15,233 bases of DNA from Phycisphaerae bacterium (lineage in GTDB: Bacteria; Planctomycetota; Phycisphaerae; Phycisphaerales; SM1A02), in the NCBI GenBank assembly GCA_002690755.1, contig NZFT01000085.1, forward strand, positions 14,964 to 30,196, in the 5' to 3' direction. The translations under genes and the position numbers were made by a program. The notes under the pieces were generated by a model. That model had not been told where the DNA came from. It saw nothing but the letters and a program-made list of their open reading frames with translations, and did not search any database. Positions 569-15,233 of the stretch are shown here, in pieces (position 1 is the first letter of the stretch; each line of letters opens with the position of its first letter).

Positions 569-1051
569 TCACAGGTCGCCGTCGCGCCGTTCTCGGACCC
601 GGGATTCAGTCTGGCCGCCCGACTGGTGATCGACGAGCTCGATGCCCGCCGAACGCCAGGCCGCCTCCGCGACCGGGCCACGCCCTTCGTCCACGAGGAT
701 CCAGTCGGTGTCGAACGTCGAGATCGCGAGGACCGGTACGCCCGCTTCACGAAGTGGTCGGATCAGTTCGAGCAGGACGCCGACCAGCTCGAAGTCGAGC
801 TTGCCCGGGACCGACCACGCGAGATACGGACCACTTCGCCCCGGATCGGGACTGGCCGCGACGGCAGGATCCTCCCACGCCCGGACGAGGGTGGTCTCTT
901 CGGGGGTTCGGATCACCGCGTCAAGGGGCCCCGGCGGCGCATCACCCGCCGGCGGCACGGGTGCCTGGGGCGATAGTCGCAGGACCGCGATCCGACCCGT
1001 TCGCCGTTGGAGCTTTCGACCCGCGTCCTGCTTCGAAGAATGGTCGACCAT
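569..1051 (-). CDS. ACT-domain protein, COG3603 type (tandem ACT-like, putative amino-acid sensor)
   Basis: The product is 160 residues, slightly longer than the roughly 130-residue family norm. The recognisable core begins at residue 19 ('GRIAVLRL') and continues with 'GPLDAVIRTPEETTLV' (41-56), 'GKLDFELVGVLLELIRPL' (83-100) and 'AGVPVLAISTFDTDWILV' (103-120), then a final helix and strand to about 140. This order, especially the GVL...L..AGVPVLAISTFDTD stretch, is characteristic of stand-alone ACT-domain proteins (COG3603/ACT_7), related to amino-acid-binding regulatory domains such as those of aspartokinase. Binding of an amino acid in the cytoplasm is the expected role. Ligand and target are unknown, and no catalytic residues are seen. 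ATG at 1051 is the only Met start and lacks a good ribosome binding site, so residues 1-18 may not be native. A charged tail follows residue 140. It is divergent from the tRNA gene and upstream of the lipoprotein at 449 on the same strand. Confidence 0.85.
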   Translation of the reverse strand: MVDHSSKQDAGRKLQRRTGRIAVLRLSPQAPVPPAGDAPPGPLDAVIRTPEETTLVRAWEDPAVAASPDPGRSGPYLAWSVPGKLDFELVGVLLELIRPLREAGVPVLAISTFDTDWILVDEGRGPVAEAAWRSAGIELVDHQSGGQTESRVRERRDGDL

Positions 1052-1193: not shown

Positions 1194-1264
1194 TGGGGAT
1201 TAGTGTAACGGTAGCACGACTGATTCTGATTCAGTTAGTCCAAGTTCAAATCTTGGATCCCCAG
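1194..1264 (+). tRNA. tRNA-Gln, anticodon CUG
   Basis: The sequence folds into a full cloverleaf. The acceptor stem pairs TGGGGAT (1194-1200) with ATCCCCA (1257-1263), with discriminator G1264. The D-arm is GTG/CAC around a 9-base loop. The anticodon stem pairs ACTGA (1219-1223) with TCAGT (1231-1235) around loop TTCTGAT, placing anticodon CTG at 1226-1228. The variable loop has four bases, and the T-stem pairs CCAAG with CTTGG around TTCAAAT. The weak U1-A72 pair followed by GGGG, and the U-U-C-U-G-A-U anticodon loop, are typical glutamine identity elements. The CCA end is not encoded (the DNA reads GTTC after position 1263), so it must be added by nucleotidyltransferase. It reads CAG codons. 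At about 45% G+C (32 of 71 bases) it is clearly poorer in G+C than its surroundings. Confidence 0.95.
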
Positions 1265-1945: not shown

Positions 1946-4900
1946 TCAGGCCTCTTCTTCCGTCGACTCGGAGGGCGATTCGTCCTCCGTGGATCCCTTG
2001 GCGTCATCGGCGTCCTTGGACGTCTCGATCGGTTCAAACGACTCACCGAGTTCGCTGTCGCCACCTTCGAGACGACCGCCTCGAATCTCGCGCCGGATCT
2101 TTTCGGGGAGCGGAAGCTCGTCGACCAGGGTGTCCGTGATGTCGCGAAGCGATCCCTTGCCCATGTCCGTGTTGCTGACCACCCGCGGCGTGAGCACGAT
2201 CAGGAGTTCGGTCCGGCGTCGCACCTCGGACTCCGAACGGAACAACCCGCCGATCAGGGGGATGTCGCCGAGCAACGGAATCTTCATGTCGCGGCGTTCG
2301 CTGTTCTCCTCGATCAGGCCGCCGATGACCACCGTCTCCCCGTCCTTGACCGTGACGGTGGTGTCCGCGGTCCGCTTGATGATGATCGGGCTGCGGAAGT
2401 TCTCGCTGATGTCCGTGGTCTTCTCGCTCAGGCGCGAGATCGTGGGCCGGATGTCCATTCGCACGAAGCCGTCCGGATTGATGGAGGGCTTCACCTCGAG
2501 AATGATGCCCACGTCCTGGGCCTGCACGGTCGTACTCTGGGTGCCGGTGTCGAAGGTCGCGATGGAATCCGGAAGCCGGATCTCCTGGCCGACCTGGATC
2601 CGACCCTCCTCGTTGTTCGCGACCGTGATCGAAGGGTTCGAGAGCAGCTGCAACCGTCCTTGGGCGTACATCGCGCTGAGGACGAGATTGAGATCGTTGA
2701 AACCCACCGAGAACGAACCCGACACCGGCTGGCTGAAGGCCCCGAAGACGTCGGTGCTGCTGTAACGCACCGAACCCGCGGTCCGGAGCGGCACGACCCC
2801 GACCTTCTCGTTGAGGGTGACCCCGAAGTCCGAGTCGTCGTCGAGGGTGATCTCCGCGAGCATGACCTGGATCAGGACCTGCGGCGGATCGACGTCGAGT
2901 TCCTTGATGATCGACTCGACCTGCTCCATGTACCGCGGCGAGGCGTTGACCAGGACCGCGTTGCTCTTCACGTCGCCGACGATCGTCACCTCGCGTTCGA
3001 GGAGCCGGGCGGCCGAGGGAAGCTGATCGGAATTCAACGTCTCGACGAGCTTTCGCTGGTCCTCGCTCACGAACTCGCTGACCACCCGGGCCACCTCGCC
3101 GGCTTCCGCGTTCCGAAGCGGATAGACCAGGGTCTGCCGCTCGTTCGCCTCTTCGGCGTCGAGCTCCCTGACCACCTCCCCGACCAGTTCGAGGTACTTC
3201 GGCGTGCCGGAGACGATCAACGCGTTGGTCCGACTGTCGACGGTGATCGACAACGCCTGGCGCTCGTCCGGAACCATGGTGAGATCGGTGCCGAACATCT
3301 CGGTCTCCGTGCCGCCACCCGGCAGGCTCGAGACTTCGACGGCTTCGCCGATGTCCTCCCGCGGCTTGAGGACGTAGAGACTCCCCTGCTGCCGGAGCTG
3401 GAAGAGTTCGGTCAGGATCTCCGCCATCGCGTCCGCGTCGGCGTTCTCCAGCTTGAAGACCTCGATCCGCTTCGAACCCGTGGAACTGGTGTCGAGGTCG
3501 CGGATCATCCGCTCGATGAGCAACATCGAATCCCGCGGGGCGGAGACGATCACGGTGTTGGTCCGCACGTCGGGCGTGAGCGCGATCGAGTCGCGGATGG
3601 CGCTCGAGACCTCGACCTCCATGCCGTCGGGATCGTCACCCGGCTCGACGCCTTCCATCTCCTTGAGGTACCGCATCACGGTGCCGCGCTGTCCGGCTCG
3701 TCCACGTCGGCCGCCCCCGCCGTCGAGCACGCTTTCGATCAGGGCGACGGTCTCGAGGACGTTGGCCGACGCCAGCGGCACGTACTTCACTTCGACGATC
3801 GCGCCGGGCTGCTCGGAATCGAGTCGCGACACCAGATCCCGGATCGCCGCGATGTCCGCGGGCGTGCCGGTCGCGAGGATCGCGTTGATCCGATCGTCGG
3901 CGTTCACCCGCACGACCTCCTCGCCCCGGCGACGGTTCTCCGTCTCGACGTAGAGGTCCTCGACGAGATCGACCAGGTCCGACGCCCGGTTGCGGGCGAC
4001 CGGGATGATCTCGAGCGAGTGCCCGCCGATTCGATCCGACTGGGCCTGCATGAGGACGTCGACCAGATCGCGGATCACGGTCTGGTTCTCACGGCTGGCC
4101 GCCACGATCAACGAGTTGCTTCCATCCAGCGGTTCGATCGAGACGCGGTCGCTCGGCCCCTCGGCTTCGCCGAGACTCTGCATTCGATCCCGCATCAGGG
4201 ACTCGAGCCTCGGCGCCATCTCGCGAGCCGATCCTGAATCGAGCGTGAGCACCTCGATCTCGACCGCGGAATTCAGCGGCGTCTCGGAAAGCCGCTTGAC
4301 GAGATCCTCGATCGACCGGCGGTCTTCCGGGCTCGCCGCGACGAGCAGCGAGTTGGTGCGGGGGTCGGTGATCACCAGCGGCCGTTGCCGTCGGGCGACG
4401 TCGGCGGGGAGATCCGCGTACCGACGTTCCATCACCTGCTCGACGGCCCTGGCGACCCGTTCCAGTCCGCCCCGGGTCACCGGCACCACGCGGATGTCCG
4501 CGGCGTCGCCGATCGAATCCAGATCGAGATCCGAAGCGAGGCGCTCCACCACGTCGAAGGTGTCGTTGCCGGCGGCGACGACCAGCGAGTTGGAGCGGTC
4601 GTCGGACATGATCACGGCCTGCTCCAGTTCGGCCGTCTCGGGTTGCACCCGGCGAAGCCGTTCGAGACGGGCGTCCATCAGCGACTGGATCATCGGGGCC
4701 AGCCGGGAGGCGCTCGCGTTGGCGAGCTCGATGATCCGGATCTCGCGGAAGTCCACCGGCACCTCGACGTCGAGTCGGGCCAGAAGATCCTCGAAGAGTT
4801 CGAAGCTTCGACCACTGGTCGATACCACGATCGAATTGGTCCGGACGTCGGGGACCGCCTTGATCCGATCCTCGTCACGGATCAGGCCCGATCGGTACTG

Positions 4901-7900
4901 CTGCTCGAAGAGCTGCCGGATCACGGTGGTGATCCGTTCCGAGGAGCCGTGTTCGACCGCGTAGATGCGGACCGCCGCGCCGGGGGCCGCGGCTTCGATG
5001 TCGAGCATCGCCACCAGTTCCTCGACCAGCGAGAGATTGGGCGGGCTCGCCACCACCACGAGGGCGTTCAACTGGGCGTCGGCCTTGACCATGAGGCGGG
5101 ACAGCGGCACGAAGACGTCGCTCTCCACCGCCCGGTCTCCACCCGCCCGCATCGCCCGCATCCGGGCGACCTGCGTCTGCATCGGCGTTCCGCCCGGAAT
5201 GTCGGTCTGGCCTTCGACCACCGCCGCCTGCACGAAGTCCGCGAGGTCGCCGGCGTCGGCGTACTTCAGGGGAATCACCCTGGCCTCCACCCATCCCGTT
5301 CCCACCTCGGAGTCGAGCTTGCCGACCATCACCTCGACGAAGGCGACCGCGGATTCCTTGCCCACCGCGATGACGGTGTTGGTCCGCTCGTCGACGGTCA
5401 GGGCGGCACGCCCGGTGAGCGACGCGCCGATCGCCCCTTCGGGAATCGCCGGGATGTCGGAACCCGGCAGCACCGCGAGGTCGCGGCCCTGCTCGAAGAG
5501 ATCGTCCACGACGCCCACGAACCGGTCGGCGGCCATGTTCTCGAGCGGGAAGATCTGGACGGTGAGGGCTTCGGTGGTGGGAAGTCGATCGAAGAGTCGG
5601 GCGACCTCCACCAGGGCCCGCGTGTTCGCCGGCGTGGAACTGATGAGAATCGAGTTGCCGGCGACGTCCGCGGTGACCCGGATCGGACTGGCCAGATCGA
5701 GCGCAATCGGGGTGCTTCGTCCACCGACCACGTTCAATCGGCGAATCTGCTCCTTCACCGCGGCGGCGATCGCGGTGCTGTCGGGCCCGCCGCCGGCGGG
5801 ATCGATCACCTGATCGATGAGGGCGACGACCGCGGCGGCCTCGGCCTGCTGCAACTGCACGATGCGGACTTCATTGGTCGCGAAATCGGCCTCGGGCTGG
5901 GCGTCGATCGCCTTGAGGATCCCGACCACGGTCTCCCGATCGGCGGGATTCGCCACCACCAGCAGGGCGTTGCGTCCTTCCACCGCGGAGATCTTGATCG
6001 GCTCCACGACGAGTCGCGAGGTGGAGTCCGCGGGCTGGGCCTTGTCGAGGCCGATCCGCTTCACCGCCCGTTCCGCGACGCTTGCCGGAACGTTCTCGAG
6101 GTCGATGAGGAAGATCCCCTGGCCGGCCGCGGGCGCGAGTCGGTCCATCTCGCGAATCGTCGTCGCGACCTCTTCGAAGAACGGACCGGTGGACGCGATG
6201 ACCAGTGCGTTGCCGACCGCATCCACGTCGATCGAGAACGGAACCTTCGCCTGGGACGCCTTGGTCGCGTAGGCGGCGCGAACCGATGCCGCGACCCGGG
6301 CCGCGGGCGCGGACTCGAGCCGGACCACCCGGACCGACACGCCCTTCACGTCGGACTCCTGCTGAAGCGCGGTCGCGAGCGTCCGGATCTGGGCGAACTC
6401 CTCCTCGTCGGCCCGGACGATGACCGCGTTGGACGGACGGTCGCCCACGATGCGGAGGGTGCCGCCTCGGTTCTGACCTTCCGGGAGATAGATGGTCCGC
6501 AACGCCTCGGCGAGCGACTCGGGGTCGCCCGCTCCGACCGGAATCAGTCTCGGAGCCGGAAGCCGCACGAACTCCGCGATGTCGAGCTGGGCGATGATCC
6601 GTTCGATCTTCTGAAGGTTCTGACGATTGGCGGACACCACCAGCGAGTTGGTCTGGACTTCCGCACTGGCGCTCACCCACTCCTCGCTCTGCATCAACAC
6701 CGGCGGTGACTGCTCGCCCCGCTCCCGGTTCGAACGATCGTCGTCGGCCTGCCGGGGCTCCTCCCGATTCGGCCGTCGCCCACCGCGACGGGCCGCCTCC
6801 ACCTGGGGACGGAACGCGTCGTTGATCGCCCGGGCGACGCTTCGGGCGTCGGCATAGACGAGCGGAAGCACCGCGAGCTGGAGGGAGGCGTCGTATTCCT
6901 CGCTGTCCAGCTGCTCCACGAGCGCGAGTATTCCCGCCCACTCTTCTTCCGCGGCGGTGACCACCAGGCTGTTCGTCGCTTCGTCGGCGATGATCCGCAC
7001 GTTCTGCTTGTCGGGGGTGTCCGCCTCGAGCGCGAAGGGACCGTAGAAGTTGCCGAGGGCGTCCTTCAGTTTCATCGCGTCCGCGAACTGCAGGGCGACG
7101 AAGTCGGTTCGACGGGTCCGGGTTCCCGGCGCGTCGAGCTCGGAGAGAATCGTGTCGATCACCTCGAATTGATCGGGCGTCGCGCCGACGATGAGCTGGT
7201 TCTCGAATCGGTTGTAGTCGACCGCGACGTCCTGCCAGTCGAGCCCACGGGCCAACAGCAGCCGGTTCAAGGTGAAGGACACGTCGACCGCAGGGGCGTG
7301 TTCGAGGGAAATGATCCGGTATTCGATCGGACTTCGGGCCGGCGCCTCCTCGAGCTTCGCGAGAATCGACTCGATGACCGGCAGGCTCTCCCGGGTCGCG
7401 GTGACGACGATCGAATTCGATCGCCGGTCCGCCACGATGATGGCCTGGACTTCGATCGGCGTTGCGTCCGGATCCTCGTCCATGGCGATCGAGATGCCGG
7501 TGGTCCGTCCGTCCTCGTCGAGACGAAGCGTCTCTCCGAGGATCCGCGTCGCCTCGCCGGCGTCCGCGACCTCGAGGTTGTAGGTGCGGATGACGCTCTC
7601 CGCGGTGTCGTCGGGCGCGTCGAGGCGGTTGATCAACGCGGCGATCTGCGGGTAGAGCGAGGCGGGCGCGTTGACGAGGATCGAGTTGGTCCGGGCGTCG
7701 GGCGTGATGACCACGCCGTCACCACCCCGGCGGTCGAACTGGGCACCGATCAGGGCCGCCATGTCGGCGGCGTCGCCGCGTTCGATCACCACGATCTCGA
7801 GCGACCTCGATCCGGTGAGATCGGGTGCGTCGATCCGGGCGACCAGATCCTTGACCATTCGAACGTCGTCCTCGGTGCCCGCGACGATCATCGCGCCGGA

Positions 7901-10900
7901 GGTCTCGATGGGCGTGACGACCACCGTCGCGGCCGACCCGGCGCCCCGACTTCGATCCCGCAGGAAGCGGCTGACGGCCCGGGCGACGTCGGCGGCGTCG
8001 GCGAACTCGGTGCGAACGACCTCCACCACCGAATCGCCGCCGGCGAGGAGACCCGAGAAGTCGTCGAGAATCGCATCGACGCTCGCCTGCTGCCCTTCGC
8101 TGCCCACCACGAACAACGTTCCGGAACCCGGATCGGCGAAGATCTTCGGACCGGTCGATTCCTCGTCGTCCCGCCACCATCGGAACTCGGTCTCGCCGCC
8201 GCCCAGCGCGTCGGAGAGCACCTCTTCGAGCAGCGAGACGTCCGCACCGGGAACCCGGTAGTAGCGGACGATGCGTCGCTCGTCGTCGGGGGTCGGGACG
8301 TCGAGCGACTCGATGAGTTCCTCGACCAGTTCGAATCGGTCCCCCTGCCCGCTGACGATCAGGGCGTTCAAGCGATCGTCGACCTCGACCGCGATGCTGC
8401 CGAGGCCGCTTCGAGTCTGATCACCACGACTGCGGGAGCGGAAACTGAAGCCACTGAACCCGGAGTCGCTCCGGGTGAGCGACGACACCAGGGACTCCAC
8501 CGTGTTCTTGATCTCGTTGGCCCGGGCGTTTCGAAGCGGGTAGATCCGATACTCGTATCCGGCCTTTCCGTCCTTCTCGTCGAACGTCTTCGCGAGCTGC
8601 GAAACCTCTTCGAAGGTCGGATCGTCGCAGGCCACCAGCAACGTCGCTCCGCCGGTGCGGCCGGTGATGGCCACCGCGGCGGACTGGGTGCGGCGCCCGC
8701 GTCCCGTCGAGAAGAGCCGGGCACGATCGTCGTAGAACCCCTGCACCGCGGCGGCGACCTCGCCGGCATCGGCCCGCGTCAGTTCGATGGTGCGGACCGG
8801 GAAACGACTGGTCGCCTCCCGGTCGATTCGTTCGAGCACGTCCCGCATCTCCGCGAGCGTCGGGGCGTCGGCCCGGACCAGCAGGACGCCGGAGGCGTCG
8901 TCGGCCAGCACGAGGGTGGTCGCGCGAAGTCGTTCGTCGCCACCGATGACCGCCTGATCCAGGATTCTCGCCGCGGCGGTCGGGCTCGTGGCCGCGAGTT
9001 CGATCACGGTGAGCGGATTCCGCTCCCGGCCGTCCTCGACGTCCAGTTGCGCGAGCAGGGACTCCACCTCCGCCAGCTCCTCGGTGCTCGCGGTCACCAC
9101 CAGTTGGTTGCTGCGTGCGTCGACCGCGAAGTCGGGTTCCGCCGCGGTGGCGGCCCCGCTGCGACGGATGTTGCGGAATCGCGTCTGGAAGATCTGCCGG
9201 AGGGTCCGCTGCAGTTCGCCGGCGCTGGCGTACCGCAGCTGGAAGAGTCGCAACGTCGCACGCTCCGCCTTCGGCGACTGCGTCGCGAGCTCGACGTAGC
9301 GGTCGACGAACGGGACCGCTTCCCGCGGCGCGAGGACCACCAGCGCGTTCGCCTCGACGTCCGCGACGGCGCGGATCAGCGTCGGATCGAAGCGGGCCTG
9401 GACCGGACGGCCGTCACCGTCGAGCGTGACCGAGAGTTCCCGATAGCGGTTCCGGCCGGGCGACTGCAGCAGCGAGACCAGTCCGCTCGCGGCCCGACTT
9501 GCGCTCATTTCGTCCAACCGGTAGATGCGGACGACCACTTCGGGAGCGTCCGCGGGCCGGGCGACGGACCCGATCAGATCCGCCAGGAGTTCGAAGTCAG
9601 TCTCGCGACACGCGATGATCAGCGAATTGCTGGTGACGTCGGCCACGACCGTGGTTCGGCGACCCAGGTCGCCGGGACGGCCCCCCGCCGGAACGAGCTG
9701 CCGGATGGTCTGGCCGACCACCGACGCGACGTTTCGAACGTCCACGCCGGGGGGAAGCGGCACGGTCCGGATGATGCTTCCTTCCTCGGGAAGCGTGTCC
9801 TCGACCTCGTCGGCGAGTTCGACCACCTGATCGAGTTCCCGAGGCGCACCGAGAATGACCAGCGAATTGGTTTCGGGGTCGATCGCGATCACGATCTCCG
9901 CCTCGTCCTCCGCCACCGCCTCGATCGCGGGGGTCTCCGTCGTGGACGCCACCGCGTCCTGCCCGACGGGAGTCGCCGCGAGGACGATGCCGGCGACCGC
10001 GATGCGTGCGAAGCCCATCAAGCCCGGGTTGCGTCCGATCCCGCCTCGCAGCCCGTCGGCTTCCGAAGCCGGCGTGAAAGAGACCTTCGAACCGGGGGCA
10101 TCGACGGCCTTCGACTTCTTCAGCAGTTCCTCGATCGGGACGATCCGGACTCGATCGTCGTCCTCGCGGTCCAGCATTCGTTCGAGCATGCGGGCGATGT
10201 CCTCCGCCGAGCCTCGGCTGGGATCGATGGGCACGGTGCGGAGTTCACGGGCGACGTTGAGCGTCGCGTCGTCGATGCCCTCGACGATCTCCCGGATCTC
10301 CGAGAACTGGTCGGGGGTCGCCCGGACCAGCAGGGTGTTGCTGGAAGCGTTCACGCGGATCGCGGGCGGCGATTCACCGTCGTCGGCGACCGCGAAGAGT
10401 TCATCGAGGGTGGTGGCGAGTTCGCGAGCGTCGGCGTTGCGGACTTCCAGAACCCGGATCGATCGGCCACTTCCACCCGGGGCGGCGACGTCGAGCTGGG
10501 CGACGAGCTGTTCGGCGGCGTTCAGGGCGGCGAGCGGGCCGGTGACGATCACCGCGTTCAATCGATCGTCGGGCAGCACCCGGATCGGCGGCTCCTCGCT
10601 GACCTGTCCGCGGGCCCGGGCCATCATCAGTTCGGCCCGCATCCAGCTGGGGAGATCCCGCGGCTGCAACACCGAATCCTCGGCGAGCAACGACTCCACC
10701 AACGGAGCGACCCGCGAAGCCGAGGCATGCTTGAGGAAGACCGTCCGGACCTGCACTCCACCGCCGGAGCTCGCCATCGCCGAGAGCTGCTGGGCGACGA
10801 TCTCCTGCAGCCGGGGAGCCGCGGTCACCACGATCGAGTCGGACCGGCCCGCGGAGGCGACCACCGGTCGGGCTTCACCGGGCCGGGCGTCGGACGCGGC

Positions 10901-13900
10901 GTCGAGGGATCGCTGCAGCGCCTCGGCCATGTCCGCGGCACCACCCGTGGGGACCGGATAGACCCGGACCTCAACCGAACCGCCCGCATCGGCCTGATCG
11001 AGTTCGCGGGCGAGCGTCGAGGCGATCGACTGCAGTTCCGCCGGTGCGGAGACGAGGATGCGGTTGGACGAGACGTCCGCGGTCACGCTGGGTTCCGAGA
11101 TCACGAGACCGGCTCGGGCCGCATCGCGAAGCGCCGCCGGCCATCGCGTTCGATCGCGAAGCACGGGGGCGATGACCGCGGCGACGGCGTCGGCGGACGC
11201 GTTCCGCATCGTGATGACCTTGAAGTCGACCGGCGGAAGCACCGGAATCTGGGCGTCCCACTCCGAAAGCAGCGCGACGGCCCGCTCGGTCTCCTCCTGG
11301 GTCCCGACCACGAGCACCGAATTGGTCTCCGGTTCGGCGAGCAGTTCCAACGTGGAACGAACGCCGCCGGGACGGGTTCGATCCAGCACGGTCTGCGCGG
11401 TCCCGGCGATCCTCGCCGCGTCGGCCCGCGCTGGTGTGAAGGTGGTGTAGACGAGGTCGGCGTCCACGTCGGGACGATCGAGCTTCTCGATCAGGTTCTC
11501 GGCGAGATTCACCGCCGGCTGCGGGCCGCTGACGATGAGACTGTTGGTCCGGGCGTCGGCTTCGACCCGGACGGTCGGCGTGAGATCGATGGCGCCACGG
11601 CTGCGGCGAATTCGTTCGATCAGCACGCGGGGGTCGTTGCCCTGCTGATCGTCGAGCAGCTTCTGCACGATGGGGGCGATCCGAATCGCGTCGGCGTGGG
11701 CGAGTTCGAAGGTCCGCGCATCCATCGCGTCGGTCGCGGGGCGGGCGTCGAGCGGTTCGATGAGGACTTCGACCTCCTCGATCTCCTCCGGAACGCCAAC
11801 CAGCAGGAGTGCGTTCGAGCCGGCGGCGGGAATCACCTTGACCTCCATCGCATCACCGGTCGCGGGACTGGTCATGTCGGGAAGGGCCTGCTGCAGCGCC
11901 GTCGCGACGACCGCGGCATCGGCGAACATCAGTGGTCGGACCCGCACCGTCGGATCACCGACGACCTGAGCCGAGGAGTCCAACGTCTTGATGAGCTGTT
12001 CGGCGACCGGCATCACCACCTCCGGCGCGGAGATGATGACGGTGTTGGTCTTTCGATCCGCGGTGACCGTGAGCAATCGATCGATCTCGCGGTCGAGCTG
12101 GCCGGACGTCTCGGTCATCCGTGCGACGAGGATCTCGCGAAGCATCGGAACCACCGAGTCGGCCCGGGCCTGACTGAGCCGGAAGGTGCGAAGGATCGTG
12201 GTCGGCATGACGGGGCCGGACTCCAGCGAGTCGACCACCTGGCCGACTCGATCGAAGATCGCCGTGGGCCCCGAGACGAGCAGCGTGTCGCTCGCGACAT
12301 CGATGCTGATCGAGATCGATCCCGCGAGGCCGCGATCGCCGCCACCGAGGTGTCCACCGTCGGCGAGCTCCCGCAGCGTGCGGGCGGCCGCCTCGAGCTC
12401 CACGGTCGGAAGCTTCCAGGTCCGGATCTCCGTCGCGTCGACGATCTGGGTCTGGTCGAGCTGCTGCACGAGCTGCTCGAACCCGGCCATGCGCTGGATC
12501 GGCGCGTCGACGATCAACGCGTTCATCTGGGGATTCGCCCGCACCACGACCTCCCGGGCCTGCTGCAGATCCGGACGCGGGCGTCCCCGGCTGTCCCGGG
12601 GCATCGGCGGCTCGGGATACATCTGGTCGATGGTCGTCGCGAGATCCTCGGCGAGGGCGACCCGGAGCGGGAAGATCCGGATCTCCCGACCTTCCGCGTC
12701 GAGGCGATCCGCGTCGTTGAGATCCGTGACGATGGCGCGGATCTCCTCGAGCAGATCCGGATGCGCGGCGACGATCAGGGCGTTGGTCGCGACGTCGGCA
12801 CTGATTCGCACCGGCTTTTCGGCCTTCTCCTCGTTCGAGCGTCGCTCGTAGGTCTGGCCGAGCGCGTTGGCGAGGTTGACCGCATCGGCGGTCCGGACCT
12901 GGAGGATCCGGATCGGCGGCAACGCCTCGTCCGCGGTATCGATGGTGTCGACGATCTGCCGGATGATCTCGTGCTCGCGGGGCTCCGCGGCGACCAGAAT
13001 CGCATTGACCTGCGGCAGGGCCTCGATCACCGGGGCGGGGCCGCCGAGCGTCGCCATCGCCAGCTCGTTGCCGAGCAGTTCGATGATCATCGTGGCGACC
13101 TCGGTCGCCTCGCCGTGGCGAAGGGAGATGAGCCGGATGTCCGGGGGACTCGCCTGCGCGGACTCGAGCTGGGCCACGATCTGCGTGAAGCGATTGAGCG
13201 ACGCGTCCTCGCCGACCGCGAGAATCGTGCCGTTGACCGCATCGACCTCGACTTCGACGCCGGTGAAGTCGGGATCCCCCTCGGTCTGTTCCGCGAAGAG
13301 GCGGGTCGCCCGCCCGGAGATCTCCGTGACGTCGCCGCTGGTGATCTCGATCACGCGAAGGGCCCGGGTGACCGGCACCGCTTCGAGGTCGGCGAGGATC
13401 TCGTCGACCTTGGTGAAGGTGAAATCGTCACCCGCGACGATGAGCGTGCGACTGCGGGGTTCGAACTGGACGTTGACCTCGACCGCCTTCTCGCCGTTCG
13501 ATCCGGGGCGACTGAGCACCCCCTGGCGGGCGAGGTTCTGCAGCGTGTTCGCGATCTCGGAGCCCTCGCCCCGTTCCACGTTCCAGGTCTTCAGCGTGGC
13601 CTGCGGCGGAAGCTCGATTCGATCGAGCTGCTGCACCAGCACCTCGAAGCTCGAACGACGCCCGCTCGGCGCTTCGATGATCAGGGTGTTCGTGCCCGCG
13701 TCCGCGCTGACGAAGACCTCGCGGGGCTGCCGCAGGTGCGGCAGCGGTCGCCCGCGACTGTCCAGCGGCATCGGTGGTTCGGGGTAGAGCGTCCCCAGCG
13801 CTTTCGCGAGATCGACCGCCCTCGCCAGCCGGAGCGGGAAGATCATGGTCTCGCGTTCCGCCTCGGTCTCGGTGTTGCGGTTCAGCGATTCGACGAATTC

Positions 13901-15233
13901 CTTCATCTCCAAGAAGACCGCCTCGTGGGCGGTCACCACCAGGGTGTTGGTCGCCGCGTCGGCCTCGATCCGCACCGGCTGCTCGCGACGGATGTCGTTG
14001 GGGCGGGCGTCGTATCGCGTGGTGAGGAGTCGGGCGATCTGCGCCGCATCGCTGCCCGAAAGCTGGAGCATCCGCAGTGGCGGCATGTCCGCCGGCTCGA
14101 AGACGTCGAGGGCCCGCACGAACTCCTCGATCGTCCGGACCTGGGCGGCATCGCCCCGCACCCACAGGCTGTTGGTCGGATTCACCACTTCAATGGTCGG
14201 CGGCGCGATCACCCGGCCGTCGCCGATCGCCACGGTTCGATCGATCATCTGCTGCAGCGGGGCCACGATTTCGGCGGCCCGGGCCTGCCGGATCGGGATC
14301 ATGCGGGCGACGGGCTCGGGGGGAAGCAACTGCCGTGCTTCGGCCAGCGCGCGTTCGAAGGACTGGACCGACGTGGTCGACCCGAGAACCTCGAAGACGC
14401 CGGACGCGGCGTCCACCATGACTTCGGGCCGGGGAAGTTCACCCTCGGGCAGCAGGGCCGCCTTGCGATCGAACGCCACCAACGCCTTTTCGAGCAGGGC
14501 GTCACCCGAACTGGTTCCGATCCGGATCACCCGGTAGGTCACGTCACCCGGCTGCGGGCGATCGAGCGTCCGCAGGAGGCCGTCGATCGCGACGAACTGA
14601 TCCGCGGTCGCGGTGACCACCAGCAGGTCGAGTTCGTCGACCGCTTCGAAGGTGGGCGGCACGTAGACCGAACCGTCCTTCGGCTTGAGAATCGCGCGGG
14701 AGAGCGTGGTCATCGAACCGACCAGCCGACTCGGCGGCGCAAACTGCGCGGTGAACTGTCGGACCACCGTCTCGGGCCTGATCGACGCCTTCGCGGAATC
14801 GATGGCCTTCTCGAAGCGATCGAGCGACTCCCGCGGTCCTTCGATCACCAGCCGCCGCGTCGCCGGATCGAAATCGGTGACGACCTCGAGCGTGGGATCG
14901 ATCTCGGCACCGGCCTCGAAGATCCGGGTCGCCCGGGCGAACGCGGTCCCGGGATCGGTCGCATCGAGCACCAGGTAGCGGACTTCGCGATCACCACGAG
15001 CCGGGCGGTCGATGAGCACGATCGTCTTCCGGACCGAATCGAGATCGCCGACGGGACCCGCCGCGACGAGGCTGCGGCCGTCCGGACCGGGGACCAGCTT
15101 CAGCACCGCCGCCTGCCGGGGCGTGAAGACCGCTCGACAAGCCGCGATCGCCGCATCGGGCGTCGCGTGCGTGAGCGGAAGCAGCACCACGGAATCACCC
15201 TCGCCCGGCGTGCCGGCACCCTCCTGCTCCAGA
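1946..15233 (-). CDS. Giant secretin (GspD/PulD/PilQ superfamily) with about 49 tandem N1-like domains (5' end outside window)
   Basis: One uninterrupted frame of more than 4,400 codons ends at TGA 1946-1948 and is still open at the right edge, so the N-terminus, including the expected signal peptide and any N0 domain, is missing. A GTG at 15190 (used here as residue 1 for numbering) is preceded by 14 more open in-frame codons and no ribosome binding site. Residues 1-4099 are tandem secretin N-type modules. Residues about 4100-4340 are the secretin beta-barrel domain. A tail of about 70 residues is helical ('LPLPEKIRREIRGG'), then strongly acidic and Ser-rich, ending EEEA. Secretins form multimeric gated outer-membrane channels for type II/III secretion, type IV pili or phage export. 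Their N modules form stacked periplasmic rings that dock inner-membrane partners. Typical members have 550-800 residues, so this one is at least five times larger. By eye I find only three cysteines. Which machine it serves is not visible here. The secretin assignment is certain, the repeat count approximate. Confidence 0.95.
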   Translation of the reverse strand, partial: LEQEGAGTPGEGDSVVLLPLTHATPDAAIAACRAVFTPRQAAVLKLVPGPDGRSLVAAGPVGDLDSVRKTIVLIDRPARGDREVRYLVLDATDPGTAFARATRIFEAGAEIDPTLEVVTDFDPATRRLVIEGPRESLDRFEKAIDSAKASIRPETVVRQFTAQFAPPSRLVGSMTTLSRAILKPKDGSVYVPPTFEAVDELDLLVVTATADQFVAIDGLLRTLDRPQPGDVTYRVIRIGTSSGDALLEKALVAFDRKAALLPEGELPRPEVMVDAASGVFEVLGSTTSVQSFERALAEARQLLPPEPVARMIPIRQARAAEIVAPLQQMIDRTVAIGDGRVIAPPTIEVVNPTNSLWVRGDAAQVRTIEEFVRALDVFEPADMPPLRMLQLSGSDAAQIARLLTTRYDARPNDIRREQPVRIEADAATNTLVVTAHEAVFLEMKEFVESLNRNTETEAERETMIFPLRLARAVDLAKALGTLYPEPPMPLDSRGRPLPHLRQPREVFVSADAGTNTLIIEAPSGRRSSFEVLVQQLDRIELPPQATLKTWNVERGEGSEIANTLQNLARQGVLSRPGSNGEKAVEVNVQFEPRSRTLIVAGDDFTFTKVDEILADLEAVPVTRALRVIEITSGDVTEISGRATRLFAEQTEGDPDFTGVEVEVDAVNGTILAVGEDASLNRFTQIVAQLESAQASPPDIRLISLRHGEATEVATMIIELLGNELAMATLGGPAPVIEALPQVNAILVAAEPREHEIIRQIVDTIDTADEALPPIRILQVRTADAVNLANALGQTYERRSNEEKAEKPVRISADVATNALIVAAHPDLLEEIRAIVTDLNDADRLDAEGREIRIFPLRVALAEDLATTIDQMYPEPPMPRDSRGRPRPDLQQAREVVVRANPQMNALIVDAPIQRMAGFEQLVQQLDQTQIVDATEIRTWKLPTVELEAAARTLRELADGGHLGGGDRGLAGSISISIDVASDTLLVSGPTAIFDRVGQVVDSLESGPVMPTTILRTFRLSQARADSVVPMLREILVARMTETSGQLDREIDRLLTVTADRKTNTVIISAPEVVMPVAEQLIKTLDSSAQVVGDPTVRVRPLMFADAAVVATALQQALPDMTSPATGDAMEVKVIPAAGSNALLLVGVPEEIEEVEVLIEPLDARPATDAMDARTFELAHADAIRIAPIVQKLLDDQQGNDPRVLIERIRRSRGAIDLTPTVRVEADARTNSLIVSGPQPAVNLAENLIEKLDRPDVDADLVYTTFTPARADAARIAGTAQTVLDRTRPGGVRSTLELLAEPETNSVLVVGTQEETERAVALLSEWDAQIPVLPPVDFKVITMRNASADAVAAVIAPVLRDRTRWPAALRDAARAGLVISEPSVTADVSSNRILVSAPAELQSIASTLARELDQADAGGSVEVRVYPVPTGGAADMAEALQRSLDAASDARPGEARPVVASAGRSDSIVVTAAPRLQEIVAQQLSAMASSGGGVQVRTVFLKHASASRVAPLVESLLAEDSVLQPRDLPSWMRAELMMARARGQVSEEPPIRVLPDDRLNAVIVTGPLAALNAAEQLVAQLDVAAPGGSGRSIRVLEVRNADARELATTLDELFAVADDGESPPAIRVNASSNTLLVRATPDQFSEIREIVEGIDDATLNVARELRTVPIDPSRGSAEDIARMLERMLDREDDDRVRIVPIEELLKKSKAVDAPGSKVSFTPASEADGLRGGIGRNPGLMGFARIAVAGIVLAATPVGQDAVASTTETPAIEAVAEDEAEIVIAIDPETNSLVILGAPRELDQVVELADEVEDTLPEEGSIIRTVPLPPGVDVRNVASVVGQTIRQLVPAGGRPGDLGRRTTVVADVTSNSLIIACRETDFELLADLIGSVARPADAPEVVVRIYRLDEMSASRAASGLVSLLQSPGRNRYRELSVTLDGDGRPVQARFDPTLIRAVADVEANALVVLAPREAVPFVDRYVELATQSPKAERATLRLFQLRYASAGELQRTLRQIFQTRFRNIRRSGAATAAEPDFAVDARSNQLVVTASTEELAEVESLLAQLDVEDGRERNPLTVIELAATSPTAAARILDQAVIGGDERLRATTLVLADDASGVLLVRADAPTLAEMRDVLERIDREATSRFPVRTIELTRADAGEVAAAVQGFYDDRARLFSTGRGRRTQSAAVAITGRTGGATLLVACDDPTFEEVSQLAKTFDEKDGKAGYEYRIYPLRNARANEIKNTVESLVSSLTRSDSGFSGFSFRSRSRGDQTRSGLGSIAVEVDDRLNALIVSGQGDRFELVEELIESLDVPTPDDERRIVRYYRVPGADVSLLEEVLSDALGGGETEFRWWRDDEESTGPKIFADPGSGTLFVVGSEGQQASVDAILDDFSGLLAGGDSVVEVVRTEFADAADVARAVSRFLRDRSRGAGSAATVVVTPIETSGAMIVAGTEDDVRMVKDLVARIDAPDLTGSRSLEIVVIERGDAADMAALIGAQFDRRGGDGVVITPDARTNSILVNAPASLYPQIAALINRLDAPDDTAESVIRTYNLEVADAGEATRILGETLRLDEDGRTTGISIAMDEDPDATPIEVQAIIVADRRSNSIVVTATRESLPVIESILAKLEEAPARSPIEYRIISLEHAPAVDVSFTLNRLLLARGLDWQDVAVDYNRFENQLIVGATPDQFEVIDTILSELDAPGTRTRRTDFVALQFADAMKLKDALGNFYGPFALEADTPDKQNVRIIADEATNSLVVTAAEEEWAGILALVEQLDSEEYDASLQLAVLPLVYADARSVARAINDAFRPQVEAARRGGRRPNREEPRQADDDRSNRERGEQSPPVLMQSEEWVSASAEVQTNSLVVSANRQNLQKIERIIAQLDIAEFVRLPAPRLIPVGAGDPESLAEALRTIYLPEGQNRGGTLRIVGDRPSNAVIVRADEEEFAQIRTLATALQQESDVKGVSVRVVRLESAPAARVAASVRAAYATKASQAKVPFSIDVDAVGNALVIASTGPFFEEVATTIREMDRLAPAAGQGIFLIDLENVPASVAERAVKRIGLDKAQPADSTSRLVVEPIKISAVEGRNALLVVANPADRETVVGILKAIDAQPEADFATNEVRIVQLQQAEAAAVVALIDQVIDPAGGGPDSTAIAAAVKEQIRRLNVVGGRSTPIALDLASPIRVTADVAGNSILISSTPANTRALVEVARLFDRLPTTEALTVQIFPLENMAADRFVGVVDDLFEQGRDLAVLPGSDIPAIPEGAIGASLTGRAALTVDERTNTVIAVGKESAVAFVEVMVGKLDSEVGTGWVEARVIPLKYADAGDLADFVQAAVVEGQTDIPGGTPMQTQVARMRAMRAGGDRAVESDVFVPLSRLMVKADAQLNALVVVASPPNLSLVEELVAMLDIEAAAPGAAVRIYAVEHGSSERITTVIRQLFEQQYRSGLIRDEDRIKAVPDVRTNSIVVSTSGRSFELFEDLLARLDVEVPVDFREIRIIELANASASRLAPMIQSLMDARLERLRRVQPETAELEQAVIMSDDRSNSLVVAAGNDTFDVVERLASDLDLDSIGDAADIRVVPVTRGGLERVARAVEQVMERRYADLPADVARRQRPLVITDPRTNSLLVAASPEDRRSIEDLVKRLSETPLNSAVEIEVLTLDSGSAREMAPRLESLMRDRMQSLGEAEGPSDRVSIEPLDGSNSLIVAASRENQTVIRDLVDVLMQAQSDRIGGHSLEIIPVARNRASDLVDLVEDLYVETENRRRGEEVVRVNADDRINAILATGTPADIAAIRDLVSRLDSEQPGAIVEVKYVPLASANVLETVALIESVLDGGGGRRGRAGQRGTVMRYLKEMEGVEPGDDPDGMEVEVSSAIRDSIALTPDVRTNTVIVSAPRDSMLLIERMIRDLDTSSTGSKRIEVFKLENADADAMAEILTELFQLRQQGSLYVLKPREDIGEAVEVSSLPGGGTETEMFGTDLTMVPDERQALSITVDSRTNALIVSGTPKYLELVGEVVRELDAEEANERQTLVYPLRNAEAGEVARVVSEFVSEDQRKLVETLNSDQLPSAARLLEREVTIVGDVKSNAVLVNASPRYMEQVESIIKELDVDPPQVLIQVMLAEITLDDDSDFGVTLNEKVGVVPLRTAGSVRYSSTDVFGAFSQPVSGSFSVGFNDLNLVLSAMYAQGRLQLLSNPSITVANNEEGRIQVGQEIRLPDSIATFDTGTQSTTVQAQDVGIILEVKPSINPDGFVRMDIRPTISRLSEKTTDISENFRSPIIIKRTADTTVTVKDGETVVIGGLIEENSERRDMKIPLLGDIPLIGGLFRSESEVRRRTELLIVLTPRVVSNTDMGKGSLRDITDTLVDELPLPEKIRREIRGGRLEGGDSELGESFEPIETSKDADDAKGSTEDESPSESTEEEA
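2170..2893 (-). other. Secretin (outer-membrane channel) domain of the giant protein
   Basis: The domain opens with 'VDPPQVLIQVMLAEI' (residue 4100 onward), the usual junction between the last N module and the secretin core. It continues through 'NLVLSAMYAQGRLQLLSNPSI' type strand pairs and 'GIILEVKPSINPDGFVRM'. It ends in the family signature at residues 4284-4317 (nt 2240-2341): G-E-T-V-V-I-G-G-L, eleven residues, then I-P-L-L-G-D-I-P-L-I-G-G-L-F. This fits the PROSITE secretin pattern at every position as I remember it. The closing 'ELLIVLTPRVV' is also standard. At about 240 residues the barrel is of normal size, so the enlargement of the protein is all periplasmic. Nothing in the channel domain looks degenerate. 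Confidence 0.95.
9901..10165 (-). other. Non-repeat insert with a signal-peptide-like hydrophobic segment inside module 22
   Basis: Module 22 is split: its first strand and helix ('LRTVPIDPSRG...ARMLERMLD') and its second half ('EIVIAIDPETNSLVILGAP') are separated by about 88 residues (about 1676-1764), where most modules have 10-30. The insert holds a charged part ('EELLKKSK'), a Gly-rich linker, then Met1725 followed by 'GFARIAVAGIVLAATPVGQ' (nt 9961-10018), a hydrophobic stretch ending in AVA-S that resembles a signal peptide and cleavage site. An acidic linker follows. No convincing ribosome binding site precedes Met1725. Confidence 0.65.
12221..12938 (-). repeat. Copy B of a duplicated three-module block inside the secretin array
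   Basis: Modules 11-13 of the array, counting from the right edge, match modules 6-8 (13382-14106) one to one and in the same order. The middle module carries the same unusual loop 'PEPPMPxDSRGRP' and ends 'FExLVQQLD'. The first has 'KPVRIxADxATNALIVxAH'. The third opens 'TEIRTWK'. The block is about 718 bases, close to the 725 of the other copy. The spacing between copies is five modules. Confidence 0.8.
13382..14106 (-). repeat. Copy A of the duplicated three-module block inside the secretin array
   Basis: Modules 6-8 of the array. The middle one contains 'PEPPMPLDSRGRPLPHL' (nt about 13735-13790), shared in shortened form with module 12 and with no other module. The first contains 'QPVRIEADAATNTLVVTAH', and the third opens 'LKTWN'. 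The neighbouring modules 9 and 14 also resemble each other, so the duplicated unit may originally have been five modules. The DNA of the copies has diverged considerably. Confidence 0.8.

What the first reader, a model, noticed from the sequence alone, without database searches (positions are those of the whole stretch)
1946..15233. A secretin with about 49 tandem N-domains and more than 4,400 residues
Seen: a normal-sized secretin channel domain with an exact signature at its C-terminus, preceded by about 4,100 residues of N1-like modules in one open frame. Known: GspD, PilQ, PulD, XcpQ and phage pIV carry only a few N modules, which stack as rings of a few nanometres and span the periplasm. 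Inferred: stacked rings of 49 modules would make a tube well over 100 nm long, far more than an ordinary periplasm. Either the modules do not stack as rings, or the cell has an unusually deep periplasm, as reported for planctomycetes with large inner-membrane invaginations. It could then act as a trans-periplasmic conduit or ruler, or an external or periplasmic scaffold for uptake, pili or surface pits. I know of no described secretin of this design.
Basis: partly seen in the sequence, partly recalled or inferred. Interest (0 to 1): 0.95.

Follow-up and report, generated by a model that had tools for sequence, protein, structure and literature searches.

The report
Giant secretin with fifty-two ring modules
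A planctomycete bacterium encodes a type II secretion outer-membrane channel about seven times longer than usual, built from some fifty-two copies of the small domain that normally stacks into a few rings, so it may form a tube over 100 nanometres long between the two cell membranes.

Summary
Confirmed, and larger than reported. The frame runs past the window edge: 4,788 aa with a signal-like start, GspD-type N0, 52 N modules (49 complete in the window) and a secretin domain. It is the last gene of a T2SS-type operon (gspF, gspG, then H/I/J/K/L/M-like), a neighbourhood that recurs in distant Phycisphaerae. It is no assembly artefact: 325 homologous proteins of similar length were found, and in close relatives modules keep their position (48-67% identity, against 26% between modules of one protein). 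Two further results. In two lineages the array is split over two or three adjacent genes; N0 was found only on the first piece, the secretin only on the last; at many junctions the cut seems to run through a module. In unsplit relatives one module carries a hydrophobic, partly signal-peptide-like insert where a sister genus is cut. Best reading: GspD with a greatly extended, segmentable periplasmic ring stack from inner-membrane platform to outer-membrane pore. Stacking, length and processing are inferred. Against: the same genome has an ordinary-length T2SS-like secretin.

The parts
1946..15233 (-). Giant GspD coding frame (the gene continues 1,079 bases beyond the window end, to the ATG at contig position 31275; whole protein 4,788 aa)
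   Evidence: Pfam and NCBIfam hits
2177..2671 (-). Secretin pore domain PF00263 (residues 4548-4712)
   Evidence: (E 7.1e-52 at contig 17140-17634)
2888..15184 (-). N-module (RBM/Secretin_N) array, modules 4-52 of 52 (residues 377-4475)
   Evidence: fold of two stretches
2888..3127 (-). Module 52, next to the pore (position of GspD N3; residues 4396-4475)
9800..10222 (-). Module 25 (residues 2031-2171) with a long loop insert; the genus-g35 relatives are split into two genes in this module
9944..10015 (-). Signal-peptide-like stretch inside module 25 (residues 2100-2123)
1946..2152 (-). C-terminal tail after the secretin domain (residues 4721-4788 and stop), charged and low in complexity
   Evidence: read from the sequence

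Best explanation
It is the GspD secretin of a type II secretion system in a Phycisphaerae planctomycete. Its periplasmic part has grown from the usual N0-N1-N2-N3 to N0 plus 52 RBM modules. N0 at the N-terminus docks on the inner-membrane platform, the C-terminal secretin domain forms the outer-membrane pore, and the oligomerised modules stack as successive rings into a long tube (roughly 130-210 nm if every ring adds 2.5-4 nm, my assumption) that carries substrate and/or pseudopilus across a deep or variable periplasm. The tube is segmentable: relatives encode it as one, two or three polypeptides, often cut inside a module, so half-modules may reassociate to join the segments. SHOWN: gene, domains, order N0-array-secretin, operon, conservation, split forms, module fold by prediction for two stretches. 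INFERRED: oligomerisation, stacking of all modules, length, docking, cargo, half-module joining.
For: GspD identity: TIGR02517 1,147 bits; the profile of the C-terminal part hits solved GspD at E 7.7e-90; the profile of the N-termini is collinear with GspD N0-N1-N2 (residues 8-223 of 5wq7, E 1.5e-33). Pfam's N0 model PF21305 is weak in P0001 (E 0.002) and above its cut-off in 2 of the 9 relatives' N-termini scanned with it; 3 of the 9 had no match. T2SS operon: GspF and GspG over Pfam cut-offs, GspG also over its NCBIfam cut-off; GspH/I/J/K-, PilM/GspL- and GspM-like genes below theirs. A GspL-like gene lies upstream in 12 of 13 relatives' loci. Middle-array profiles match solved GspD across successive N domains. 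Independence and constraint: 325 proteins of 0.55-1.75x length; in the class sample 104 of 248 genomes match the C-terminal part at E<=1e-60, 54 of these 104 in a frame of 3,000 aa or more; 35-57 modules in 121 giants, commonest count 51; modules keep position across relatives. Split forms: my N0 HMM hits 14 of 15 first pieces (one of them broken by undetermined bases) and 0 of 19 secretin pieces, so pore and inner-membrane end could be linked only through the modules.
Against: The same genome has a second T2SS-like cluster with an ordinary secretin (958 aa, 4 modules, weak N0 match) and a third secretin of 841 aa, so the envelope does not everywhere demand 50 rings. AF2 gave confident single modules but no reliable arrangement between modules (pTM 0.39 and 0.30; superpositions on several GspD domains at once mostly 12-22 A rmsd, one two-module match to XcpQ at 4.8 A); no oligomer could be predicted. 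Module number is not one fixed length: 20 to 63 over the families. The HR (GspC-like) domain that I read by eye in the GspM-like gene was not supported: no convincing PDB match, no Pfam match. 144 of 248 genomes of the class have no match at the threshold used, six of the window's own family among them. No measured periplasm depth for Phycisphaerae was found.
Confidence: 0.6

Rival explanations
1. Only the last few modules, perhaps also N0-N1, form rings as in ordinary GspD. The middle ~45 modules form a flexible beads-on-a-string tether or brush that anchors the pore to the inner membrane or wall over variable distances, or a binding surface for cargo.
For: AF2 gives no fixed arrangement between modules (pTM 0.30 for 12 middle modules); module sequences differ strongly (mean 26% identity); module number varies between families; the ordinary T2SS-like secretin of the same genome manages with 4 modules.
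Against: Linkers are short (median 9 residues) and profiles match GspD across module boundaries; position-by-position conservation is more than a tether needs; split pieces would need some end-to-end joint.
Confidence: 0.25
2. The giant is a polyprotein: signal peptidase cuts at the internal signal-like stretch in module 25, giving an N0 tube segment and a pore segment that rejoin through the shared module.
For: A loop insert of 52 or more residues with a hydrophobic 13-mer (mean Kyte-Doolittle >= 1.0) is found in module 25 in all 114 giants that could be aligned there, of 121 (one, P0052, is evidently misaligned); hydrophobic inserts concentrate there (105 of 158 against 38 of 527 elsewhere); the sister genus g35 has a gene boundary with a signal-like start in the same module.
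Against: Only 49 of the 114 have both a strongly hydrophobic core (> 1.5) and an A-x-A motif after it; G016, G027, G030, G034 and G249 have the hydrophobic stretch without A-x-A; none of 8 distant giants passed the stricter scan. It may be a fusion relic, a membrane-binding helix or a hinge. 25 of the 38 hydrophobic inserts elsewhere sit at one other site, one module from the end. Compatible with the best explanation rather than exclusive. Odds lowered from 0.3 after the count.
Confidence: 0.25
3. It is the channel of a long pilus (type IV-like fibre passing through the tube) rather than of protein secretion.
For: The operon encodes a major pseudopilin and minor ones plus a PilM-like protein; the tube could sheath a long fibre. 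PMC5394234 (passages) describes fibres from pits in other planctomycetes.
Against: The major subunit is GspG above its family cut-off (99.5 against 88.85 bits) and the secretin is GspD rather than PilQ by score (1,147 against 424 bits); a separate cluster with pilin-like genes lies on contig C2.
Confidence: 0.15
4. Assembly or annotation artefact joining separate genes, or a runaway repeat array of no function.
For: The window comes from a fragmented genome with scattered undetermined bases.
Against: Homologues of like length in independent genomes, including single-contig ones (G016, G034, G042, G074, G251) and a 3.9-Mb contig (P0028); ordered module orthology.
Confidence: 0.01

Closest known systems
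[quoted passage not shown]
   Same: N0 at the N-terminus, RBM modules, secretin domain; T2SS operon; profile matches to solved structures
   Different: 52 modules instead of three (N1-N3); 4,788 aa instead of roughly 650 (chain lengths); split over 2-3 genes in some relatives. PulD with bound PulC HR reaches about 20 nm into the periplasm (PMC6882859, passages)
Thermus thermophilus PilQ
   Same: Extra N rings in a bacterium with a wide periplasm; [quoted passage not shown] channel ~35 nm long, periplasm ~70 nm (PMC4463427, passages)
   Different: Six rings, called there an unusual number; type IV pilus and DNA uptake; one polypeptide of 757 aa
Secretin-less N0-plus-array proteins of Planctomycetia (e.g. 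Polystyrenella longa 2,669 aa, Rubripirellula lacrimiformis 2,250 aa)
   Same: Tandem Secretin_N modules, N0-like start, beside T2SS genes in several genomes
   Different: No secretin domain; in some genomes the separate secretin gene also has an N0-like domain (G311, G454), so they need not be parts of one tube

Membership tests
T2SS secretin GspD | C-terminal secretin pore domain PF00263 | tested here: met
   E 7.5e-50, residues 4548-4712
T2SS secretin GspD | Score above the curated GspD cut-off | tested here: met
   TIGR02517 1,146.8 bits, cut-off 351.35, 23 stretches, so inflated by repeats; best stretch spans residues 4245-4716
T2SS secretin GspD | N0 domain at the N-terminus | tested here: met
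   Profile of 17 N-termini collinear with solved GspD N0-N1-N2, E 1.5e-33; Pfam's PF21305 alone only E 0.002, below cut-off, in P0001
T2SS secretin GspD | Encoded with other T2SS core genes | tested here: met
   GspF and GspG above Pfam cut-offs, H/I/J/K-, L- and M-like genes below curated cut-offs, all upstream; no gspE seen in the cluster, ten T2SSE-family matches on other contigs
T2SS secretin GspD | GspC-type HR partner for N0 | tested here: inconclusive
   HR-like C-terminus of the GspM-like gene seen by eye only; two searches gave no support
T2SS secretin GspD | Oligomeric ring channel in the outer membrane | not testable with these tools
   No oligomer prediction or experiment available
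Type IV pilus secretin PilQ | Best match PilQ; pilus operon | tested here: not met
   TIGR02515 423.8 bits against GspD 1,146.8; T2SS-type genes upstream
Planctomycete crateriform structures | Surface pits present in the lineage | not testable with these tools
   Passages of PMC8882080 report that described Phycisphaeraceae lack them; nothing was found on the window's own organism

The most novel reading that the evidence does not exclude
A modular trans-envelope tube: planctomycetes build type II secretion conduits of 30-60 stacked rings from one to three array polypeptides that lock end to end by completing a shared, split RBM module. In the window's lineage a single giant precursor is cut at a conserved internal signal-like sequence into such segments. 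Tube length is set by how many modules the genes encode, matched to a deep periplasm. (Odds lowered from 0.25 to 0.2 after bore out the split module and the cleavage motif in only part of the cases.)
Probability: 0.2. Interest if true: 0.95.

Novelty: new variant of a known kind. Interest (0 to 1): 0.86.

Why it matters
The largest ring number I met in print is the six N rings of Thermus PilQ; here there are about 53 (N0 + 52). If they stack, this would be an exceptionally long periplasmic protein channel, and it would bear directly on how planctomycetes move large proteins across an unusual envelope. The naturally split forms give a ready-made test of whether N domains are interchangeable stacking units. 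Relatives of the array proteins occur in named species (Polystyrenella longa, Rubripirellula lacrimiformis; that these are cultivated is recalled), so tomography and gene deletion should be possible.

Tried and rejected
Assembly artefact: rejected. Type IV pilus identity: rejected on scores and operon. Strict single-length ruler: not supported, since counts vary between families, although they cluster near 51 among close relatives. Surface pits: not supported for this class. HR domain in the upstream GspM-like gene: the profile search against solved structures gave nothing convincing, so it stays a reading by eye. The position match of modules was lost in two of the eight giants compared (P0052, P0030; mean 34%, scattered). 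The internal hydrophobic insert as a general feature of all giants: not shown outside the alignable relatives. A first tree had two wrongly cut rows (G016, G262) and was replaced. L163 was counted as split there, but its second frame has no signal-like start, so it may be a frameshift in that record; one search repeats tree and test without it. My first reading by eye that nearly every cut runs through a module was too strong; one search gives the counts used. For Planctomycetia I first thought N0 and secretin always sit on separate proteins; G311 and G454 have N0-like matches on both, so no such claim is made. The rise per module could not be measured, because no model coordinates are given out. 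The 25 hydrophobic inserts one module from the end are unexplained. Families absent from the fold lists are not excluded.

The absence of a published description rests on searches only; most subscription papers and all bioRxiv preprints are missing from that library. Papers: passages seen of PMC5394234, PMC11131199, PMC4463427, PMC5745081, PMC6882859, PMC10550240, PMC8882080, PMC6532946 and PMC12057145; all others in search listings only. RBM, HR and pseudopilus biology beyond the cited passages is recalled.

Full report
WHAT IS THERE. The window is contig C82:14964-30196 of a 3.47-Mb, 133-contig genome (88.8% complete, 5.9% contamination). The minus-strand frame 1946-15233 is real and does not end at the window edge. 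The whole gene runs from ATG at contig 31275 to the stop at 16909: 4,788 aa with one undetermined residue. The N-terminus reads as a signal peptide followed by a GspD-type N0; then come 52 N modules (residues 151-4475), the secretin domain (4548-4712) and a charged tail. Three early modules (4, 5, 7) are weak matches. The closest database protein is 95% identical over the last 559 residues and named Phycisphaeraceae bacterium.

NEIGHBOURHOOD. Directly upstream on the same strand lie, in order of transcription: a 303-aa protein without convincing match, GspF, GspG, GspH-like, GspI-like, GspJ-like, GspK-like, a PilM/GspL-like protein and a GspM-like protein, then the giant. GspG passes its NCBIfam cut-off; GspF and GspG pass Pfam's; H, I, J, K, L and M are below the curated cut-offs. 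A GspL-like gene lies upstream in 12 of 13 relatives' loci (all but G107), with GspF or GspG found too in several. Ten T2SSE-family ATPase matches lie on other contigs. The same genome has a second T2SS-like cluster with an ordinary 958-aa secretin (4 modules, weak N0 match) and a third secretin of 841 aa.

HOW COMMON. The protein search, restricted to 0.55-1.75 times the length, found 325 proteins at E<=1e-3; only the 1,453 candidates sharing most words were scored and the best 120 listed. Of 248 genomes drawn from the class, 104 match the C-terminal 559 residues at E<=1e-60. The open frames are 3,000 aa or more in 54 of the 104, 2,000-2,999 in 9, 1,100-1,999 in 31 and shorter in 10; some short ones are contig ends or split genes. 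The other 144 have no such match, six genomes of the window's own family among them. In 121 giants (P0001 and the 120 listed) the count is 35-57 modules, commonest 51; four of the 121 lack N0. One relative outside that set has 63 modules in 6,165 aa.

THE ARRAY IS OLD AND ORDERED. The 52 modules of P0001 are 26.5% identical to one another on average. In P0012 the best partner of each of the 52 modules is the one at the same position (mean identity 67%); in P0028 50 of 52 are (51%); in P0066 and P0061 the order holds with a few exceptions and a shift by one after module 25 (49 and 48%). P0043 and P0041, which are shorter, lack blocks of modules. In P0052 and P0030, the most distant of the eight compared, the register is lost (34%). 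Modules 9-10 resemble 14-15 (42 and 59%), a trace of duplication.

SPLIT FORMS. In family f19 the array is carried by two adjacent genes: of 13 loci examined, 11 hold both pieces complete, one is cut by a contig end (G199) and in one the first piece is broken by undetermined bases (G213). First pieces have 20-28 modules, second pieces 12-16 plus the secretin; together 34-43. One locus of family f21 (G068) has three pieces, 9 + 14 + 15 modules. In genus g35 of the window's own family (G190, G263) there are two pieces, 43 and 40 modules together. All complete pieces have a hydrophobic, signal-like start by a simple heuristic. My N0 HMM hits 12 of 13 first pieces of f19/f21 (G080 missed, broken G213 included; domain E between 1e-8 and 1e-3, so mostly weak) and both g35 first pieces strongly, and none of 19 secretin pieces. 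Pfam's own N0 model found nothing in the two f19 N-termini tried. A tree of the secretin ends (59 rows, without L163) needs two changes between split and one-gene forms, and holding all split rows together is rejected (p-AU 7e-67); array-bearing and ordinary secretins separate by one fully supported branch.

DOES THE CUT RUN THROUGH A MODULE? Half-module HMMs were run on the 15 junctions of the 14 complete split loci. The upstream protein ends with a beta1-alpha1 half at E<=0.05 in 7 of 15; the downstream protein, after its signal-like start, begins with a beta2-beta3-alpha2 half at E<0.05 in 11 of 15; both hold in 5 of 15 and at least one in 13 of 15. Best values in shuffled controls were E 1.5 and 0.26. 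In G244 the upstream protein ends after a nearly whole module. For g35 the downstream halves are very clear (E 1e-10 and 2e-8), the upstream halves visible by eye only. In one-gene giants the same module as the g35 cut (module 25) carries an insert of 52 or more residues in all 114 of 121 giants that could be aligned there (P0052 evidently misaligned). Its best 13-mer is hydrophobic (>= 1.0) in 114, strongly so (> 1.5) in 87, followed by A-x-A in 65, both in 49. The stretch is also seen in f2 and f4 giants, there without A-x-A. Over all inserts of 20 or more residues, 105 of 158 at this place contain a hydrophobic 13-mer against 38 of 527 elsewhere, 25 of the 38 at one other site (rows are related, so the Fisher p of 6e-51 is not a true probability). 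Distant giants could not be aligned there, and a stricter scan found nothing comparable in 8 of 8.

OTHER CLASSES. Planctomycetia have secretin-less N0-plus-array proteins: 74 of 78 hits carry Secretin_N without a secretin domain in the precomputed annotation (some are partial sequences), among them Polystyrenella longa and Rubripirellula lacrimiformis. They stand beside T2SS genes in, for example, G481, G454 and G311. In G311 and G454 the secretin protein has an N0-like match too, so a shared tube is not shown there.

MECHANISM. All secretins studied so far have an N0 that contacts inner-membrane partners, and an N-module of superposed rings whose number depends on the machine (PMC10550240, passages). 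PulD with its partner reaches about 20 nm into the periplasm (PMC6882859). Thermus PilQ with six rings is ~35 nm long in a ~70-nm periplasm (PMC4463427, PMC5745081). Extending this, N0 at one end and pore at the other, with short linkers and RBM fold, imply a tube; at an assumed 2.5-4 nm per ring it would be about 130-210 nm. Planctomycetes of another class have strongly invaginated inner membranes (PMC5394234); for Phycisphaerae I found no measured depth. The split forms support end-to-end continuity, since N0 and pore are then on different polypeptides. The main doubt is whether all modules stack or the middle is a flexible tether; the ordinary T2SS-like secretin in the same genome shows that distance alone does not force the length everywhere.

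VERDICT. It is a new, extreme and segmentable variant of GspD. Gene, order, operon, conservation and splitting are shown; ring stacking, length, processing and cargo are inferred.

Noticed in passing
window 1194-1264 (+): tRNA-Gln (anticodon ctg) in the gap downstream of the giant gene, opposite strand.
   Followed up: no
window 7169-15232 (+): A 2,688-aa open frame antisense to the giant gene, probably a ghost frame of GC-rich coding DNA.
   Followed up: no
window 569-1051 (-): 160-aa protein with an ACT_7 domain, downstream of the giant gene on the same strand.
   Followed up: no
G000 contig C68:15368-18244 (-), in L259: Second T2SS-like cluster with an ordinary 958-aa secretin in the same genome.
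   Followed up: partly
L126:7771-15843 (-), G396: Secretin-less N0-plus-array protein, 2,690 aa; the database holds a 2,669-aa copy from Polystyrenella longa named type II secretion system protein D precursor.
   Followed up: partly
L148, L149, L152, L154, L155, L157, L158, L161, L162, L193: Records labelled Cyanobacteria, Leptolyngbya, Akkermansia, Verrucomicrobia or Pedosphaera carry long secretin arrays; perhaps mislabelled planctomycete bins, not checked.
   Followed up: no
L120:441-18938 (-), G079: 6,165-aa secretin with 63 modules in one frame, the longest array met.
   Followed up: no
P0001 residues 4175-4387 (modules 50 and 51): Long inserts in modules 50 and 51; inserts one and two modules from the end recur in the family (142 and 122 of 685 inserts), 25 of the former hydrophobic; meaning unknown.
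   Followed up: no
L163:4481-11683 (+): Array broken into two frames without a signal-like start on the second; a true split or a frameshift in the record.
   Followed up: no
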